DNA from: a virus
Strand: one strand, 5' to 3'
Length of the DNA stretch: 31,846 nucleotides
Virus record (IMG/VR): IMGVR_UViG_3300040808_000573
Location: 1 to 31,846 of that record
Shown here: one piece after another, positions 8,163 to 30,924 of the stretch
Layout: each line of letters begins with the position of its first letter
Position numbering within the stretch: the stretch's first letter is position 1
Position numbers and translations under genes: made by a program
Notes under the pieces: generated by a model
Databases searched by the model: none
The model's input: the letters and a program-made list of their open reading frames with translations, nothing else
Told to the model about the DNA's origin: nothing

Positions 8163-8359
8163 TGCAACAGCTACAAGACAATGCTCATAAGGTTGCAGAC
8201 CAGCTAGCCGCTACGTCCGTACTTGGCGCCATTACTGCCAACCTTCCGCTTATCACTGAGTGGATGCAGATGATTGCTGCGCTTATTGGTATTTGTTCCG
8301 GTTTGGCAGCGCTGCGTTTTTACCTTAAGCGCACCTCTAATCTTGACAAGGAAGACTAA
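8162..8359 (+). CDS. Small membrane protein of the lysis cluster
   Basis: This 65-residue protein starts at ATG 8162 within TAATG, coupled to the holin gene, and ends in another TAATG shared with the next gene. A hydrophobic segment spans roughly residues 20-55 (GAITANLPLITEWMQMIAALIGICSGLAALRFYL), enough for one long or two short TM helices, followed by a charged tail. It could be an antiholin or second holin; there is no direct evidence for either. Confidence 0.65.
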   Translation: MQQLQDNAHKVADQLAATSVLGAITANLPLITEWMQMIAALIGICSGLAALRFYLKRTSNLDKED

Positions 8360-11300
8360 TGGGTGGCTTTAACTTAAACATTCCTTTAAGCTTTAACGGC
8401 ATTACTATTACGCCACAGCAGATTCAAAATGCTGTAGCTGCACAGAACGCACAGCCGGCGCAAACGCTTACGGAAGCTGTGGCCGCTATGCCAGCACAAG
8501 CGCCTGCTGCTGCTCCGGCGCAAGATGCCGCTCCGGCGCAAAACGTTACTCCAGCAACTGTAGCCGCGCCAGCGCCTGTTGCAACTACTAGTCCAGAAGT
8601 GGGCAAAGCGGGTGGCGTTGTATCTGCAGGCACTCTTGGCTTGCCAGACCTATCTGATTTTGAAGTAGCTACATCGTTGGGAATGGAGTATACTGGCGAC
8701 CGCGATCAAGATCAAATGGTGCAAGATGCTGTAGAACAAGCTAGAAACGCAGATGCACGGGCTACTGGCATTGCTCCATCTGAAGAAGAAATTGCACAGC
8801 GCACTGCGCAGTTTAATGATACTATGGAGCGTTTACAAAACGACCCCGCTTTTAGAGAGCAGTGGTTTGGCAAACGCGATTATCGTAAGTTTAATTTAAG
8901 CCCTGCAGACATTCTTAAAGTAGCAGCTTCGTTTGCTATTCCGTTTGCCGCTCCGGCTGTAGCTGGCGCTCTTGCTAGCGCTACAGGCGTTACTGCGTTA
9001 GGGGGCGCCGGAGGCATTGCGCTTACTCAAGCAGCTCTTGGCGGCGGCCTTGCAGCAGCAACTGGCGAAGACCCAATTAAAGGTGCATTAAGCAGTGCAT
9101 TTTTAACCAACCCTGCGCAAGCGTCGGCTGGAACTAATCTTACTAATTTAGCAAAACAAACTGCTGAAGTTTTTGATAACAGTAAAAACCAACCAGCTCC
9201 TGACGCACAGCCTGCGTCTGTGGTTGAACAAGTATTTGCTGACGTGCTTCCGCGCCCTGACTATACGCCTAAGCAACCTACGCCAGCCCCTGCGCCTTCT
9301 TTGCCAGTAGACATTACCGAGCCTCCTTTGCTTGAGCCGGATATTCCTACGCCTGTTGTAACGCCTCCTGTAGAGCTTACGCCTACACCTGTTGATAGCG
9401 GCGGCGGCGGTGGAGCGCAAGCAGGAGGCGCACAGCAACCAGCAGCGCCTACGCAACCAGAAGACATTACGCAAGACACTACAGCACCTGAGGGCTTTGA
9501 GCCAGTGCTGCCGCCAAGCTATTCAGAAACTATTAACAACGTTCTTGAGCAGCTTGATGTGTTCCGTCAAGAAGGGCAAAGCAGCACGCAAGCAGTGCAA
9601 GATGCTGTAGATTCTGTTGCAAGCTCTATGGACATGACGCGTGAAGAGCTGCTTGGTGAGCTGGGCACTACGCAAGAGAACATTTTGGCTGACATTGCGG
9701 TGCGTGACGAAACGCTTCGTGGTGAAATAGAAGCAGGACAAGCTGCAGCGGCTGAAGAGCGTCAGGCTATTATAGACCAAGTAGCGGCTAACGAAGAAGC
9801 TGGTATGACTCGTGACGACGCGCTTCAAGAAGCCATTGACGCCGTTGCTGCGGCTAACAATACAACCCGTGAAGATCTTCTTGGAAAGCTAGGCGCTACG
9901 GAAGAAACGCTTGCAGGTCAGATTGAAACGCTAGGTGAAACGGCAGCTACGGAACGTCAAGCAATTATTGATGAAGTACGTGCTAACGAAGCGGCAGGCA
10001 TGGAGCGCACTGATGCGCTGCAAGCAGCCATTGATGCCATTGCGGAAGCTAACAACACCACTCGCGAAGACTTGCTGACTGAAATGGGCACTTCTCAAGA
10101 AGCAATCCTTACGGAAGTTAACACGCAGCTTGAAGGCATTACGGGTTCTATTGAAGGCTTGCAGGGTGGCGTTACGCGCAATGAAGAGTTGATTGGTGCT
10201 GTTAACGACCGCCTTGATGAATACGTAGCAGAAGGTCAAACGCGAGCGGATGCGCTAGAGCAGGCCGTTGCGGACGTTGCGGCCCAAACCGATCAGTCCT
10301 TTATGGACGTGCTTGGCTACCTTGGCGACCTACAAGAAAGTGTTAACGTAGACGTTGAGAACGTACGCGTTGCTGGCGAAGAGGGCCGTCAAGCTATCCT
10401 AGACCAAGTGGCAGCTAATGAAGCTGCTGGCATGGAGCGTGACGCAGCGCTAGACGAAGCCATTGCAGGTGTGGCGGACAGCCTAGGCGTAGCCGTTGAA
10501 GACCTGCTAAGCCAGATGGGCACTAATCGTACGGAGCTTGAAGGCGCTGTTGGTACGTTAGAAGAGCGTGTTACAAACGTAGAGTCTAACGTATTGGAGC
10601 AGGTTGCTGCTAACGAAGCGGCTGGTATGGAGCGTGACGCAGCTTTAGAAACAGCAGTTAATAAAGTTGCTGAAGACCTTGGCGTAGCCGTTGAAGATAT
10701 TCTTAGCGATTTGGGCACGACGCGTGAAGGGCTTGAAGGCGCTATTGGTACGCTAGAGCAGCAAGTGGCGGATGTACAGACTAACGTACTGGACCAAGTA
10801 GCAGCCAATGAGCAGGCCGGTATGGACCGTGACGCTGCGCTAGAGACTGCTGTTAACAAGGTGTCGGAAGAGCTTGGCGTAACCCGTGAAGAGCTGCTAG
10901 GAGAGCTTGGCGCTACGGAAGAAACTCTTAGCGGGCGCATTGGCGAGTTGCAGTCTAGCGTTGAGCAGCAAGTAGCAGACGCCCAGGCTAGCGTGCTGGA
11001 GCAAGTAGCAGCCAACGAGCAGGCCGGCATGGCCCGCGATGAAGCCATTAACCAAGCCGTTGAGCAAGTAGCCGGCGACTTGGGCACGACGCGTCAAGAG
11101 CTGCTAGATCAGCTTGGCACGTCAGAGGCTAACATCTTGGAGCAAGTAGCAGCTGGCGCTGCGGCTGGGCAAGCACGTGACCAAGCTATTGGCGAAGCGC
11201 TGGGCCAAATGGGCACGGAGCTGGGCACTGGGCTTATGTCGCTGCAAGCGCAAGCGCGAGCATACAAGCCGAAGTGGACTGACTTGTTTCAATACACGAC

Positions 11301-11376
11301 GCTAACGCCTTACCAAAAGAAAGCAATGGCGCCTTTTGTTGACTATATTGCCAAAGGCCGAGGAATGTTATCATGA
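8359..11376 (+). CDS. Large repeat-rich virion-associated protein
   Basis: This 1005-residue protein has four zones: an Ala/Pro/Gln-rich N-terminus (residues 1-90), a Gly/Ala hydrophobic stretch (about 180-255), a Pro-rich linker (about 275-380), and eight tandem repeats of about 65 residues (412-942) predicted as helical coiled coil. A basic, aromatic C-terminus follows (KPKWTDLFQYTTLTPYQKK). Repeat hallmarks are VAANEAAGMERDAAL and TREELLGELGATEE. Position before tail tubular protein A suggests a virion structural or ejection-associated protein, perhaps a length-setting rod. I do not recognise the family. It overlaps the next gene as ATGA. Confidence 0.75.
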   Translation: MGGFNLNIPLSFNGITITPQQIQNAVAAQNAQPAQTLTEAVAAMPAQAPAAAPAQDAAPAQNVTPATVAAPAPVATTSPEVGKAGGVVSAGTLGLPDLSDFEVATSLGMEYTGDRDQDQMVQDAVEQARNADARATGIAPSEEEIAQRTAQFNDTMERLQNDPAFREQWFGKRDYRKFNLSPADILKVAASFAIPFAAPAVAGALASATGVTALGGAGGIALTQAALGGGLAAATGEDPIKGALSSAFLTNPAQASAGTNLTNLAKQTAEVFDNSKNQPAPDAQPASVVEQVFADVLPRPDYTPKQPTPAPAPSLPVDITEPPLLEPDIPTPVVTPPVELTPTPVDSGGGGGAQAGGAQQPAAPTQPEDITQDTTAPEGFEPVLPPSYSETINNVLEQLDVFRQEGQSSTQAVQDAVDSVASSMDMTREELLGELGTTQENILADIAVRDETLRGEIEAGQAAAAEERQAIIDQVAANEEAGMTRDDALQEAIDAVAAANNTTREDLLGKLGATEETLAGQIETLGETAATERQAIIDEVRANEAAGMERTDALQAAIDAIAEANNTTREDLLTEMGTSQEAILTEVNTQLEGITGSIEGLQGGVTRNEELIGAVNDRLDEYVAEGQTRADALEQAVADVAAQTDQSFMDVLGYLGDLQESVNVDVENVRVAGEEGRQAILDQVAANEAAGMERDAALDEAIAGVADSLGVAVEDLLSQMGTNRTELEGAVGTLEERVTNVESNVLEQVAANEAAGMERDAALETAVNKVAEDLGVAVEDILSDLGTTREGLEGAIGTLEQQVADVQTNVLDQVAANEQAGMDRDAALETAVNKVSEELGVTREELLGELGATEETLSGRIGELQSSVEQQVADAQASVLEQVAANEQAGMARDEAINQAVEQVAGDLGTTRQELLDQLGTSEANILEQVAAGAAAGQARDQAIGEALGQMGTELGTGLMSLQAQARAYKPKWTDLFQYTTLTPYQKKAMAPFVDYIAKGRGMLS
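9592..11184 (+). repeat. Eight ~65-residue (195-bp) coding repeats
   Basis: Each unit begins AL[Q/E/D]xAVxxVA, has an LLGELG[A/T]TxE turn in the middle and ends QVAANE[A/Q]AGM[E/D]RD. Several units are exactly 65 residues; one is longer (79) and the last is cut to about 47. Synonymous positions differ widely between units, so the protein is conserved while the DNA has drifted. Confidence 0.85.
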
Positions 11377-28094: not shown

Positions 28095-28276
28095 CGCTCA
28101 ATCATCGACATCAAGAGGTTAGCCACTTTCTCTCCATACTCTTTAGTGATGTCACGCATTGCAATTGTGGAGTCAGTCTCCGGGTTTGCTAGGTAGTGGT
28201 ACAGTTCCTCCAGTTCTGGGCGTGTAATGTCCGTGTAGTGGTTACGTTCAGGCCCACTCGTCGTAGTCGTGGTCAT
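28091..28276 (-). CDS. Small phage protein, unknown function
   Basis: This 61-residue protein starts at ATG 28276, with GAGGAG ten bases upstream, inside the end of the preceding gene (29-base overlap). After a Thr-rich start it is helical (RPELEELYHYLANPETDS, MRDITKEYGEKVANLLMSMIER). Longer upstream starts in this frame are shadows of the preceding gene. The stop doubles as part of the -35 box of the primase-helicase promoter. The family is not recognised. Confidence 0.65.
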   Translation of the reverse strand: MTTTTTSGPERNHYTDITRPELEELYHYLANPETDSTIAMRDITKEYGEKVANLLMSMIER

Positions 28277-28658
28277 CGTCGATGCGCTCCTCAGTGTCGT
28301 CATCATTGTAGTCTTTAAAGAAGTCCTGCTCAGCACGGCTGCGCAGCGGCCCGTCACCGTGCATGTGTACGTCGTTACCATCCACCATGGAGTAGTCCCC
28401 GGACGTGGCAGACAGCAGCGCAAAGCGAGCGTCACGCGTGTCCTCCATGGTGTCCCAGGTTGTGGTGTCCATGACGGTTTCCAAGGTCAGCATCCTGTTC
28501 GCTACGCTACGGTTAGCTTCACGCTCAATGTTATGCTGCCGGTACTGCTCAGGCGTTATGGTTTGCACCGTGCCGCCTGCCGCCTCAAAGGCTGCGATGT
28601 CAGCGGCAAGGGCGCGGCGCTCCTCGTCCTTATCGTCGCGCTTCGTGTGTAGTGCCAT
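28248..28658 (-). CDS. Phage protein with AFxxxGGxVQ motif and acidic tail
   Basis: This 136-residue protein starts at ATG 28658 with AGGAG six bases upstream. The N-terminus is charged (HTKRDDKDEERRALAAD) followed by IAAFEAAGGTVQTITPEQYR, a motif I have seen in small phage proteins where a helix precedes GGxV; its role is unknown. The middle is Thr/Met-rich and the C-terminus is extremely acidic (NDDDTEERIDDDHDYDEW), which could mimic DNA. That last idea is speculative. Confidence 0.7.
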   Translation of the reverse strand: MALHTKRDDKDEERRALAADIAAFEAAGGTVQTITPEQYRQHNIEREANRSVANRMLTLETVMDTTTWDTMEDTRDARFALLSATSGDYSMVDGNDVHMHGDGPLRSRAEQDFFKDYNDDDTEERIDDDHDYDEWA

Positions 28659-28911
28659 GCCTCACTCCTATGCTCTGCCACGGCAGCGTGTTGATGCGTC
28701 CGTGTACTGTGCCCTTTACGTCACCGTGTATGTCACCGCCTACGCTGCCACCTATGCTGCCCCAGACGCTGCCCTTGACGGTACCTTTGACGGTCAGGAT
28801 GCGCCACTCCTTGCTCTTCGGCGTGTACTCAAAGTCAATCATATCCAGCACCTGCTCAAGCGTAGGGCGTGGGGCGTTAGGGTCTGGCTTTGTGACTTTA
28901 TAGCTGCCCAT
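28630..28911 (-). CDS. xG[DSN]V tetrapeptide-repeat protein, short paralogue
   Basis: This 93-residue protein starts at ATG 28911, overlapping the DUF551 stop as TGATG. Residues 17-28 (PTLEQVLDMIDF) match the N-terminus of the larger paralogue at 29087. Residues 42-73 are eight tetrapeptides (KGTV, KGSV, WGSI, GGSV, GGDI, HGDV, KGTV, HGRI), which would fold as a regular beta-helix or beta-solenoid with Val/Ile inward. Similar G-V repeats occur in uncharacterised phage proteins; bactofilins are a more distant analogy. Function unknown. An in-frame upstream extension to 28995 is not needed. Confidence 0.75.
   Translation of the reverse strand: MGSYKVTKPDPNAPRPTLEQVLDMIDFEYTPKSKEWRILTVKGTVKGSVWGSIGGSVGGDIHGDVKGTVHGRINTLPWQSIGVRHGTTHEARR
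28693..28788 (-). repeat. Eight 12-bp coding repeats (short tetrapeptide protein)
   Basis: Eight consecutive 12-base units encode x-G-[T/S/D]-[V/I]. On the plus strand the unit reads roughly GACGCTGCCxxx or CACxxTGCCxxx. Confidence 0.8.
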
Positions 28912-29090
28912 CACTGCTCCTCCGGCGGTTCGGGTAGGGGCATCCAGTGGGTGGGTTTCCGGTAATCCCAGCCCGCCCACTTGCCCGACAACCAAAATGA
29001 GCTTTGGGCGTACATAAAGTACCCAAGGTTTATACCTAAAAGGATATGCTCACCATCCCGTGGCGCTGTCTCAATCGGTTGCCAAGTCAT
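28911..29090 (-). CDS. DUF551 family protein
   Basis: This 59-residue protein has the DUF551 pattern: an N-terminal WQPIETAPRDGEHILL and a C-terminal THWMPLPEPPEE, with Trp/Gly-rich strands between. The family is common in phages and prophages with no known activity. The start is ATG 29090, overlapping the previous stop as ATGA, with AGGAGG upstream. It lies between two tetrapeptide-repeat paralogues, suggesting that one of them arose by duplication around it or that DUF551 was inserted. Confidence 0.88.
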   Translation of the reverse strand: MTWQPIETAPRDGEHILLGINLGYFMYAQSSFWLSGKWAGWDYRKPTHWMPLPEPPEEQ

Positions 29091-29497
29091 TGCTCCTCCT
29101 CCAACACCTTAATGGCTTCCTCCCCCCTGCCTTCTCGGATCAGGCGAATAGCGCGCTCTTTGGGGGTTTCCACAAATTGCCATTCACGCCCGTTGATTGT
29201 GCCCTGAACGTCGCCCCAGACGTTGCCCAAGACGTCGCCTTTGACACTGCCAAAGACGCTGCCATAAACATTGGCCCAGACGCTGCCTTTGACGTTGCCT
29301 CCAACGTCGGCACAGACGCTGCCCCTGACGCAGCCCTGAACGTCGCCCCAGACATCGCCACAGACCTTCTTCACGCGTAGGCTGCCATCCTTATCGCGAT
29401 CAAACGCAACAAGCTCAAGCACTTCTTGCATCGTTGGTTCTTTCATTGCGAACTCTCCCTTTAGAGCAGCTATAAGTATGCGGTTCAATTCGTCCAT
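29087..29497 (-). CDS. xG[DSN]V tetrapeptide-repeat protein, long paralogue
   Basis: This 136-residue protein starts at ATG 29497 (TGATG overlap, AGGAGG seven bases upstream; a GTG at 29500 is also in frame). Residues 22-32 (PTMQEVLELVAF) match the shorter paralogue at 28630. Residues 46-101 are 14 tetrapeptides of form x-G-[D/S/N]-V with no insertion, then NGREWQFVETPKERAIRLIREG, a C-terminal module I recognise from other phage proteins with such repeats. A beta-solenoid of Val ladders is likely. It ends in EEEQ, encoding the next ribosome site. Function unknown. Confidence 0.78.
   Translation of the reverse strand: MDELNRILIAALKGEFAMKEPTMQEVLELVAFDRDKDGSLRVKKVCGDVWGDVQGCVRGSVCADVGGNVKGSVWANVYGSVFGSVKGDVLGNVWGDVQGTINGREWQFVETPKERAIRLIREGRGEEAIKVLEEEQ
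29195..29362 (-). repeat. Fourteen 12-bp coding repeats (long tetrapeptide protein)
   Basis: An uninterrupted run of 14 twelve-base units. On the plus strand most read GACxxTGCCxxx or GACGTCGCCxxx. Units differ at synonymous and first-residue positions, so the array is not a fresh slippage product. Confidence 0.85.
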
Positions 29498-29802
29498 CAC
29501 TTCTCCTCCTTTGCTTTTTCGATGGCGGCGTCCACTAGCCGGTCAACTTCGGCGACCTCTGGCCATTCGGGACCGTTCCCACGATCCTCGCCAATCAGCA
29601 TCCAGCCGCCGTCCCTGATCCACCTGTACCGTCTATCGTTCAGGTCCAGCTCTTCGATGCGGTCGGCTATGGCCTTTACAGACTCGGCGACATCGCAATG
29701 ACAGTCAGGATCGTGCAAACGTCGGATTTTGTATGCGTCATGGCATCGGCACAGCACAAGGTCTTGCAGTTCTGCGAGGGACTGCTTCACATCGTCACTC
29801 AT
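29497..29802 (-). CDS. Small phage protein, Cys-rich N-terminus plus RYRWIRD module
   Basis: This 101-residue protein starts at ATG 29802, overlapping the previous stop by 8 bases, with AAGGGAG six bases upstream. Residues 17-37 hold LCRCHDAYKIRRLHDPDCHC, a likely zinc site. Residues about 56-96 (RRYRWIRDGGWMLIG, VAEVDRLVDAAIEKA) match a module common in phage hypothetical proteins that end in a DAAI helix. The two parts look like separate modules joined together. The function is unknown. Confidence 0.72.
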   Translation of the reverse strand: MSDDVKQSLAELQDLVLCRCHDAYKIRRLHDPDCHCDVAESVKAIADRIEELDLNDRRYRWIRDGGWMLIGEDRGNGPEWPEVAEVDRLVDAAIEKAKEEK

Positions 29803-30283
29803 GCTCCTCTCCCTTTGCTTTTGCGCGAGATGCATACCCGCAGACGGGGCAGTAAAAGACAACGCTCGCGTACTCGCCGTTTTCAACCCACAGCTTTCCA
29901 TCTTCGTCCTCAAAGCAGACGTCAACGGCTTCCCCATGGCCTCCTGATTGTGAGTGCAGCTCGCAACGATGCCGCTCCTGCGGACCGCCGTTGACCCTCA
30001 CCGTATGCCCCTTTGCTTTTGTGATAGCGGCGCGGGTTTTGTTGAGCAGCTTGATCAGCCTAGGATCGTCATCAGCGCCAAACATCTTGATGAAATCCAC
30101 AAGCGCCTCCAGCAGATCAGGCGCCGCAGCGATGAGGCGGGCGTCTTCTTCCCGCCCGATGGCGCCCCAAACCGCTTCAGGATCGCTCGCCGTTGCGACC
30201 CAACATTCGGCTTCCGGCGATCGGATGTCGTACCCATCGATCAATTCATAAACGACCCACGGCCCCGGTGTGTGTTTACTCAT
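29795..30283 (-). CDS. HTPGPW-type phage protein fused to a zinc-finger tail
   Basis: This 162-residue protein starts at ATG 30283 (ATGA overlap). Residues 1-95 match a widespread phage family: KHTPGPWVV at the start and EDARLIAAAPDLLEALVDFI in the middle, ending near AAITKAKG, where family members usually stop. Residues 96-162 are an extra part with HRCELH and FYCPVCGYASR, likely zinc-binding. The joint carries the same AAAGCAAAGGG word found at neighbouring gene ends, so this looks like a fusion of two genes. Function unknown. Confidence 0.75.
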   Translation of the reverse strand: MSKHTPGPWVVYELIDGYDIRSPEAECWVATASDPEAVWGAIGREEDARLIAAAPDLLEALVDFIKMFGADDDPRLIKLLNKTRAAITKAKGHTVRVNGGPQERHRCELHSQSGGHGEAVDVCFEDEDGKLWVENGEYASVVFYCPVCGYASRAKAKGEEHE

Positions 30284-30462
30284 TGCTCCTCCTCGCTACT
30301 CTCCGTAGCCTCAAGTCCCACCTCTATGGCACGCAGCACGCCCAAGCTAAGGAAAGCTTGCGCTGCTTTGCTGTCCATGTCAAGCACCACCGTAGCGCTG
30401 CCGTCTTCGTTCTCCACTACGTCAATCACCTCGACGTGAAACTCTTCATTCTGCTTGTTCAT
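30280..30462 (-). CDS. Small acidic phage protein, unknown function
   Basis: This 60-residue protein starts at ATG 30462 with GGGAG seven bases upstream; in-frame ATGs at 30468 and 30507 are poorly placed. It reads EEFHVEVIDVVENEDGSATVVLDMDSKAAQAFLSLGVLRAIEVGLE, a beta-hairpin then helix, and ends in SSEEEQ. I have seen the DMDxxxxxxFLxxGxxxxI pattern in phage hypothetical proteins. It overlaps the upstream gene by 17 bases and the next by ATGA. Confidence 0.68.
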   Translation of the reverse strand: MNKQNEEFHVEVIDVVENEDGSATVVLDMDSKAAQAFLSLGVLRAIEVGLEATESSEEEQ

Positions 30463-30745
30463 ACGCATACTCCCACGCTTCGCGCAGTTCTTCGTAAAGG
30501 TGCACAAGGTCTGACATTAAAAAGTCTACATAAAAACAATTGATTGGCCTAATGTCGATGCCCTTCTCGTCAAACATTTCAGAGCATCTAATCTCAGCGA
30601 TGCCCCCATCGCCGTCTGTATACAGAATGGCGGCGCCGCCAGAATAGCGCCAGTCGGTCCTCTCCATGTTCTGCGCCCAGTCCATAAGCGCCTGCTCTGA
30701 TTCAAAACCGTAACGCTCAAGCAAGTCTTTACTGATGCCTTCCAT
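30446..30745 (-). CDS. Small phage protein, unknown function
   Basis: This 99-residue protein starts at ATG 30745 in a TGATG overlap with AGGAGG upstream (a GTG at 30748 is in frame). It is acidic and rich in Trp, Tyr and Asp (MDWAQNMERTDWRY, FYVDFLMSDLVHLYEELREAWEYAYEQAE). There are no recognisable motifs. Its composition resembles small phage proteins that bind host targets, but that is only a suggestion. Confidence 0.65.
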   Translation of the reverse strand: MEGISKDLLERYGFESEQALMDWAQNMERTDWRYSGGAAILYTDGDGGIAEIRCSEMFDEKGIDIRPINCFYVDFLMSDLVHLYEELREAWEYAYEQAE

Positions 30746-30924
30746 CACTGCTCCTCCTCGTCAGCGTCCAGCATAACTTCAAGCGTATCAATAGCTTGCG
30801 CAATGTCAAGTAGCAAACGCGCTTCGTTGTCGGTGAGCTGATGCTCGACAACACGAAGCACAGCGTACGCGTTGGACAGTAGGTCAGCGGCACGGGCGCG
30901 TGCGTCAGTCAGTCGTGGGGTCAT
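30745..30924 (-). CDS. Small helical protein, unknown function
   Basis: This 59-residue protein starts at ATG 30924 with AAGGAG upstream and overlaps the gene before it by 20 bases. It is all helix (RLTDARARAADLLSNAYAVL, NEARLLLDIAQAIDTLEVML) and ends in DADEEEQ, whose codons form the ribosome site for the next gene. The family is not recognised. Confidence 0.65.
   Translation of the reverse strand: MTPRLTDARARAADLLSNAYAVLRVVEHQLTDNEARLLLDIAQAIDTLEVMLDADEEEQ

What the first reader, a model, noticed from the sequence alone, without database searches (positions are those of the whole stretch)
28630..29497. Two paralogous xG[DSN]V tetrapeptide-repeat proteins flanking DUF551
The two proteins share an N-terminal PT[L/M]xxVL[D/E] helix and then consist of 8 and 14 uninterrupted tetrapeptides of form x-G-[D/S/N]-V/I. 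Such strict four-residue periodicity predicts a slim beta-solenoid with Val ladders, a fold that could polymerise like bactofilins or mimic another surface. They sit in the early accessory block, where anti-host and anti-defence proteins are usual. Two copies with different repeat numbers suggest repeat expansion under selection.
Basis: partly seen in the sequence, partly recalled or inferred. Interest (0 to 1): 0.65.

Follow-up and report, generated by a model that had tools for sequence, protein, structure and literature searches.

The report
Capped VxG-repeat proteins of phages
This phage carries two related small proteins that are mostly a four-amino-acid motif repeated 8 and 14 times between folded ends; they belong to a widespread, apparently undescribed phage protein family whose repeat array changes length in whole units while its ends and its glycine/valine core stay fixed, but its shape and job are still unknown.

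Summary
Two minus-strand genes either side of a DUF551 gene encode 8 and 14 in-phase xGxV tetrapeptides; the best of 100 shuffles of the window gives 3. They are true paralogues: a profile of the N-terminal helix/hairpin alone, repeats left out, recovers the short protein (E 8e-7). About 45 relatives lie in viral contigs. They share an N-cap and, in one branch, a C-cap (GxINGRxWxFxETPxEK + two helices), with about 4 to 44 repeats. No Pfam, PHROGs, NCBIfam or PADLOC family matches, and the C-cap pattern has no match in 84,980 prokaryote genomes. Identified neighbours are replication and nucleotide genes; none is structural. The array length of the long protein varies in whole units (14 vs at least 20 at 99% identity in another phage). 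The short protein is length-fixed and under purifying selection. G and V positions stay fixed while position 1 diverges. AlphaFold2 is confident only for the caps, so the single-chain solenoid is not supported; an 8-residue correlation fits a gp5-like VxGxxxxx beta-helix better, but weakly. Best reading: a capped rod of variable length with a variable surface, used as an early cytoplasmic scaffold or binder. Shape and target are unproven. Bactofilin kinship and surface mimicry are not supported.

The parts
28630..28911 (-). Short paralogue, 93 aa, 8 tetrapeptides; start overlaps the DUF551 stop (TGATG)
   Evidence: syntenic and length-fixed in seven relatives, purifying selection
28789..28866 (-). 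N-cap of short paralogue (PTLEQVLDMIDFEYTPKSKEWRILTV)
   Evidence: N-cap HMM E 7.9e-7 among 519 frames
28693..28788 (-). 8-unit xGxV array of short paralogue
   Evidence: many silent and few amino-acid differences between relatives, no change of length
28911..29090 (-). DUF551 protein between the two paralogues
   Evidence: PF04448 E 1.5e-7; phrog_924
29087..29497 (-). Long paralogue, 136 aa, 14 tetrapeptides (internal in-frame start with SD at 29446)
   Evidence: accessory: absent from L013-L018
29363..29443 (-). N-cap of long paralogue (helix + beta-hairpin)
   Evidence: AF2 pLDDT about 77-86, 84-91 in L078; N-cap HMM E 2.5e-14
29195..29362 (-). 14-unit xGxV array of long paralogue
   Evidence: L006 has at least 20 units, most of them exact copies of these
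29090..29194 (-). C-cap of long paralogue (NGREWQFVETPKERAIRLIREGRGEEAIKVLEEEQ), strand + two helices
   Evidence: conserved C-cap; HMM E 1.1e-22; AF2 pLDDT about 73-89

Best explanation
The two genes encode members of a phage-borne family of small cytoplasmic proteins built as [N-cap: amphipathic helix + beta-hairpin]-[VxG(D/N/S) tetrapeptide array]-[optional C-module: strand + two helices, or in some relatives DUF3310]. Shown: paralogy, architecture, variable unit number with conserved ends, fixed G/V and variable position 1, and an early/replication gene setting. Inferred: the array forms a slim beta-structured rod with an octapeptide (two-unit) register, most likely a multi-chain, gp5-like beta-helix rather than a single-chain solenoid; its length changes by unequal recombination between 12-bp units; the exposed position-1 and position-3 side chains form a binding surface. 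It would then act early in infection as a scaffold or binding rod that oligomerises and displays the C-terminal module or captures a host or phage partner. The partner is unknown. The short paralogue looks like a fixed, core version and the long one a mobile accessory version.
For: N-cap homology without repeats. Shared C-cap across T7-like and T4-like phages and many contigs, with about 4 to 29 units between conserved caps; up to 44 units elsewhere in the family. Whole-unit length change with near-identical caps: window 14 vs L006 at least 20 (99.25% nt identity, copied units with 0 mismatches), L277/L299 18 vs 40, L283/L308/L319 22/33/14. Between L283 and L308: G 3 silent/0 replacing, V 3/1, position 1 10 of 20 replaced, position 3 6 of 21. 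Short paralogue repeats: dS about 0.4, dN about 0.03-0.07. Position-3 residues correlate two units (8 residues) apart, z 4.2-4.7, not three or four apart, and silent sites do not explain it. The family profile's only non-trivial PDB matches are T4 gp5 triple beta-helix chains, best E 0.003. Caps are folded with confidence by AF2. Identified neighbours are T7-type RNA polymerase, primase/helicase, 5'-3' exonuclease, ThyX, UvsY, NrdR-like, DUF3310; no structural genes. Fusion to DUF3310 in L277/L299.
Against: AF2 does not fold the array with confidence and Foldseek finds no convincing relative, so the rod is not shown. The gp5 matches are weak and could be compositional. The lag-2 correlation is one positive among many tests, and does not recur at lag 4. 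Tail-fibre TGNV arrays, which are presumed multi-chain, do not show it. Relatives with about 4 units show that a long array is dispensable. No binding partner or phenotype is known.
Confidence: 0.42

Rival explanations
1. Single-chain beta-solenoid with Val/Gly ladders, perhaps polymerising end to end.
For: Strict 4-residue periodicity; alternation of V/G with polar residues suits beta structure; caps at one or both ends as in solenoids; AF2's low-confidence L078 model shows 2-residue strands every 4 residues.
Against: AF2, biased towards solenoids for perfect repeats (PMC11795689), gives the array pLDDT 39-64. Solenoid repeat units are stated there as 5-30 residues, with 3-4 residue repeats grouped as fibrous. 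No lag-3 or lag-4 correlation as a 12- or 16-residue coil would predict.
Confidence: 0.22
2. The array is an unstructured, elastin- or silk-like low-complexity linker between two folded caps; its length drifts nearly neutrally by recombination between 12-bp units, and the caps carry the function.
For: pLDDT below 50 in L078's array; large length variation between near-identical proteins; C-capped relatives with about 4 units; Tweety gp54 repeats were likened to disordered proteins (PMC2884959).
Against: G and V positions are held while silent sites and position 1 change; the short paralogue is fixed at 8 units; phase is kept over 30-44 units; position-3 coupling at 8 residues.
Confidence: 0.25
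3. Virion structural protein related to the TGNV arrays of tail fibres.
For: The same xG[DN]V motif is abundant in phage tail-fibre-like proteins.
Against: Tail-fibre arrays have T/S at position 1 (517 T and 16 S of 533 units, a class defined by that residue) and a different lag pattern; the capped proteins are small, with diverse position 1, and lie among replication genes with no structural neighbour recognised.
Confidence: 0.06
4. DNA- or surface-mimicking anti-defence protein, by analogy with pentapeptide-repeat gyrase inhibitors or Ocr.
For: Early accessory position; some relatives are acidic (L019 -15, L046 -12 over their arrays); mobile cassette gene.
Against: Window arrays have net charge 0 and +2; no PADLOC or pentapeptide family match; no partner known.
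Confidence: 0.1

Closest known systems
T4 gp5 C-terminal triple-stranded beta-helix (VxGxxxxx; PMC4576200)
   Same: VxG[ND]-type motif; every two units of this array satisfy VxGxxxxx; weak profile match (E 0.003); 8-residue register
   Different: Every fourth, not every eighth, residue is V here; not in a spike gene; oligomeric state unknown
Mycobacteriophage Tweety gp54 / Che8 gp57 / PMC gp51 tetrapeptide-repeat proteins (PMC2884959)
   Same: 12-bp repeat units, conserved ends, repeat number differing between phages (48/26/15), absent from the relative Llij, function unknown
   Different: Their units start with two invariant Ala (AAxx), these are xGxV; shared caps were not tested; different phages
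Synechococcus phage S-SKS1 SWZG_00239 (M4QQ06)
   Same: Same N-cap, array (about 25 units) and C-cap; unannotated family member in an isolate
   Different: T4-like cyanophage, longer array
Phage tail-fibre TGNV arrays
   Same: xG[ND]V motif
   Different: Large structural proteins, Thr at position 1, no such caps, different correlation pattern
Bactofilins and pentapeptide-repeat proteins
   Same: Repetitive beta-helical proteins rich in small turn residues (own knowledge)
   Different: Different period and no family match

Membership tests
Capped xG[DNS]V phage family (defined here) | N-cap helix + hairpin homologous without the repeats | tested here: met
   both window proteins, E 2.5e-14 and 7.9e-7
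Capped xG[DNS]V phage family (defined here) | C-cap GxINGRxWxFxETPxEK + two helices (one branch only) | tested here: met
   long paralogue E 1.1e-22; the short paralogue does not have it
Bactofilin (PF04519) | Profile match | tested here: not met
   no match at E<=1
Pentapeptide repeat (PF00805) | Five-residue A(D/N)LXX period / profile match | tested here: not met
   period is 4; no profile match
T4 gp5-type triple beta-helix | VxGxxxxx repeat | tested here: inconclusive
   pattern satisfied but with a 4-residue period; profile E 0.003
T4 gp5-type triple beta-helix | Three interdigitated chains | not testable with these tools
   only monomer prediction available
Tweety gp54 tetrapeptide-repeat proteins | AAxx unit with two invariant alanines | tested here: not met
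   unit is xGxV against the unit described in PMC2884959
Tail-fibre TGNV proteins | Thr at position 1 and structural gene context | tested here: not met

The most novel reading that the evidence does not exclude
A new class of phage early protein: capped, oligomeric VxG[DNS] beta-rods whose length and outward residues diversify quickly while the scaffold stays fixed, so that phages evolve binding rods of differing length, with exchangeable C-terminal modules (two-helix cap, DUF3310), against varied intracellular partners.
Probability: 0.2. Interest if true: 0.72.

Novelty: new variant of a known kind. Interest (0 to 1): 0.45.

Why it matters
It defines a widespread phage protein family that none of the libraries searched has named, with a very simple four-residue code, a length series (about 4 to 44 units) and natural pairs that differ mainly in length. 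That makes it a practical system for asking how minimal beta repeats fold and whether array length is functional. It could also be a source of length-tunable rods. The long paralogue's mobility between phages suggests a fitness benefit worth testing.

Tried and rejected
Searched Pfam, PHROGs, NCBIfam and PADLOC for the two proteins: nothing significant. AF2 of the window long protein and of the 29-unit relative L078: caps only. Foldseek against PDB and BFVD: nothing but S-SKS1 at E 1.2e-3 with TM 0.25. PDB sequence hits to an ARID protein and a pyridoxal kinase are low-complexity G-x runs, rejected. A first lag-2 signal at position 1 in 15 arrays vanished in 42 arrays; only position 3 holds. 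Plasmid hits from Lactococcus and Enterococcus were rejected: the Lactococcus match is a monotone GSVL run on the strand opposite its annotated gene, and the Enterococcus match too lies opposite its annotated gene. The antisense ORFs over the arrays in the window (e.g. 29060-29380 +) are by-products of the 12-bp repeat: caps, SD sites and silent changes all fit the minus strand. The promoter scan of 27.9-31.8 kb found no more than chance.

Full report
OBSERVATION. Two minus-strand genes, 28630-28911 (93 aa) and 29087-29497 (136 aa, with a possible internal start at 29446), carry 8 and 14 contiguous tetrapeptides of form x-G-x-V/I. Between them lies a DUF551 gene, 28911-29090 (PF04448), joined to both by start/stop overlaps. 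The longest such run in 100 trinucleotide-block shuffles of the window is 3.

PARALOGY. An HMM made only from the N-terminal cap of family members, without any repeat, finds exactly these two proteins among 519 stop-to-stop frames of the window (E 2.5e-14 and 7.9e-7; the model includes the long protein but not the short one). The C-cap model finds only the long one (E 1.1e-22). So these are true paralogues; the short one has a different C-terminus. Its HGTTHE end recurs in L307.

SETTING. The window is a 31.8-kb virus record with tail-fibre, lysis and other genes on the plus strand and metallophosphoesterase, exonuclease, DNA polymerase, class II ribonucleotide reductase and primase/helicase on the minus strand. 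The paralogues sit among small genes upstream of the primase/helicase. The closest isolates by primase are Pelagibacter phages at about 45% identity; the host is not known.

FAMILY. A degenerate DNA pattern for the C-cap alone (G-x-I-x-G-R/K-x-W-x-F-x-E-T-P) gave 16 stretches in the viral collection and none in 84,980 prokaryote genomes. All complete genes found have the N-cap and an array between, of about 4 (L011) to 29 units (L078), sometimes as two or three tandem paralogues (L150, L143). The isolate Synechococcus phage S-SKS1 has one. Two of these are fused to DUF3310 (E 1.4e-17 for L299). No Pfam, PHROGs, NCBIfam or PADLOC family covers the window proteins.

EVOLUTION. In L013-L018 the short gene is syntenic, with exactly 8 units; in the repeats, synonymous differences reach 0.35-0.5 per site against 0.03-0.07 replacing. 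The neighbouring block 28923 to about 30100/30747, which holds DUF551 and the long paralogue, is missing in L013-L017 (abrupt junction 28923|30747 in L016) and L018 keeps DUF551 only: the long gene is accessory. L006 is a contig whose remaining 4.7 kb shows no nucleotide similarity to the window, but it carries the long gene at 99.25% identity up to the end of the gene, with at least 20 units, in which runs of units are exact copies of units 2-14 of the window. This points to recent transfer between phages plus whole-unit, in-frame array change. The same length change is seen for L277/L299 (18/40 units) and L283/L308/L319 (22/33/14) with near-identical caps. In the pair L283/L308, G and V codons show 6 silent and 1 replacing change, position 1 ten replacements in 20: a fixed scaffold with a changing surface.

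STRUCTURE. AF2 gives confident caps (helix + hairpin; two helices) and a low-confidence array. Because AF2 is reported to over-predict confident beta-solenoids for perfect repeats (PMC11795689), this failure is mild evidence against a simple single-chain solenoid, though the alignments were shallow (15 and 17 sequences) and these repeats are imperfect. In 43 arrays (929 units) the third-position residue correlates with that two units away (z 4.7) but not three or four away, and silent sites and position 1 do not show the same excess at lag 2 (z 1.9 and 0.4). An 8-residue register fits the gp5 beta-helix motif VxGxxxxx (PMC4576200), which is also the only sensible PDB profile match (E 0.003). 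Three cautions: arrays were picked by a regular expression, several lags and positions were tested, and the expected echo at lag 4 is absent. I treat this as a lead.

FUNCTION. Of 99 neighbouring proteins scanned, those recognised belong mainly to replication, transcription and nucleotide metabolism (DUF3310, T7-type RNA polymerase, primase/helicase, 5'-3' exonuclease, ThyX, UvsY, NrdR-like), with no structural family in the lists shown (only the first 25 PHROGs families are listed). With the DUF3310 fusion this favours an early cytoplasmic role. The best-supported reading is a capped rod of variable length acting as scaffold or binder. The rod is inferred, the partner unknown. A disordered linker and a single-chain solenoid remain serious rivals.

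NOVELTY. Tetrapeptide-repeat phage proteins of variable length and unknown function were described in 2007 (Tweety gp54, PMC2884959), with a different unit. The present family is a new variant of that kind, unnamed in the libraries searched and found in many different viral contigs.

Noticed in passing
28248-28658 (-): Acidic 136-aa protein directly downstream of the short paralogue matches the SutA RNA-polymerase-binding domain (PF20661, E 2.3e-6, just below Pfam's cut-off). No PDB sequence match. Possibly a phage-borne SutA-like RNAP modulator; the gene region is conserved in L014-L018.
   Followed up: partly
28923-30747: Block of small genes (DUF551, long paralogue, three others) present or absent in close relatives, with an abrupt junction in L016.
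   Followed up: partly
L277, L299: xG[DNS]V array fused to a DUF3310 domain (a domain that PHROGs groups with nucleotide kinases).
   Followed up: partly
L032, L116, L124: Other contigs with different four-residue arrays (QVWGQVRA; DAVRGAV) followed by a tryptophan-rich region; looks like another, separate tetrapeptide-repeat family.
   Followed up: no
10402-10899: 195-bp direct repeat, 2.6 copies, inside the 1005-aa ORF 8359-11376 that has no PHROGs match.
   Followed up: no
29060-29380 (+): 106-aa antisense ORF over the long array, opened by the 12-bp repeat; an annotation trap.
   Followed up: yes
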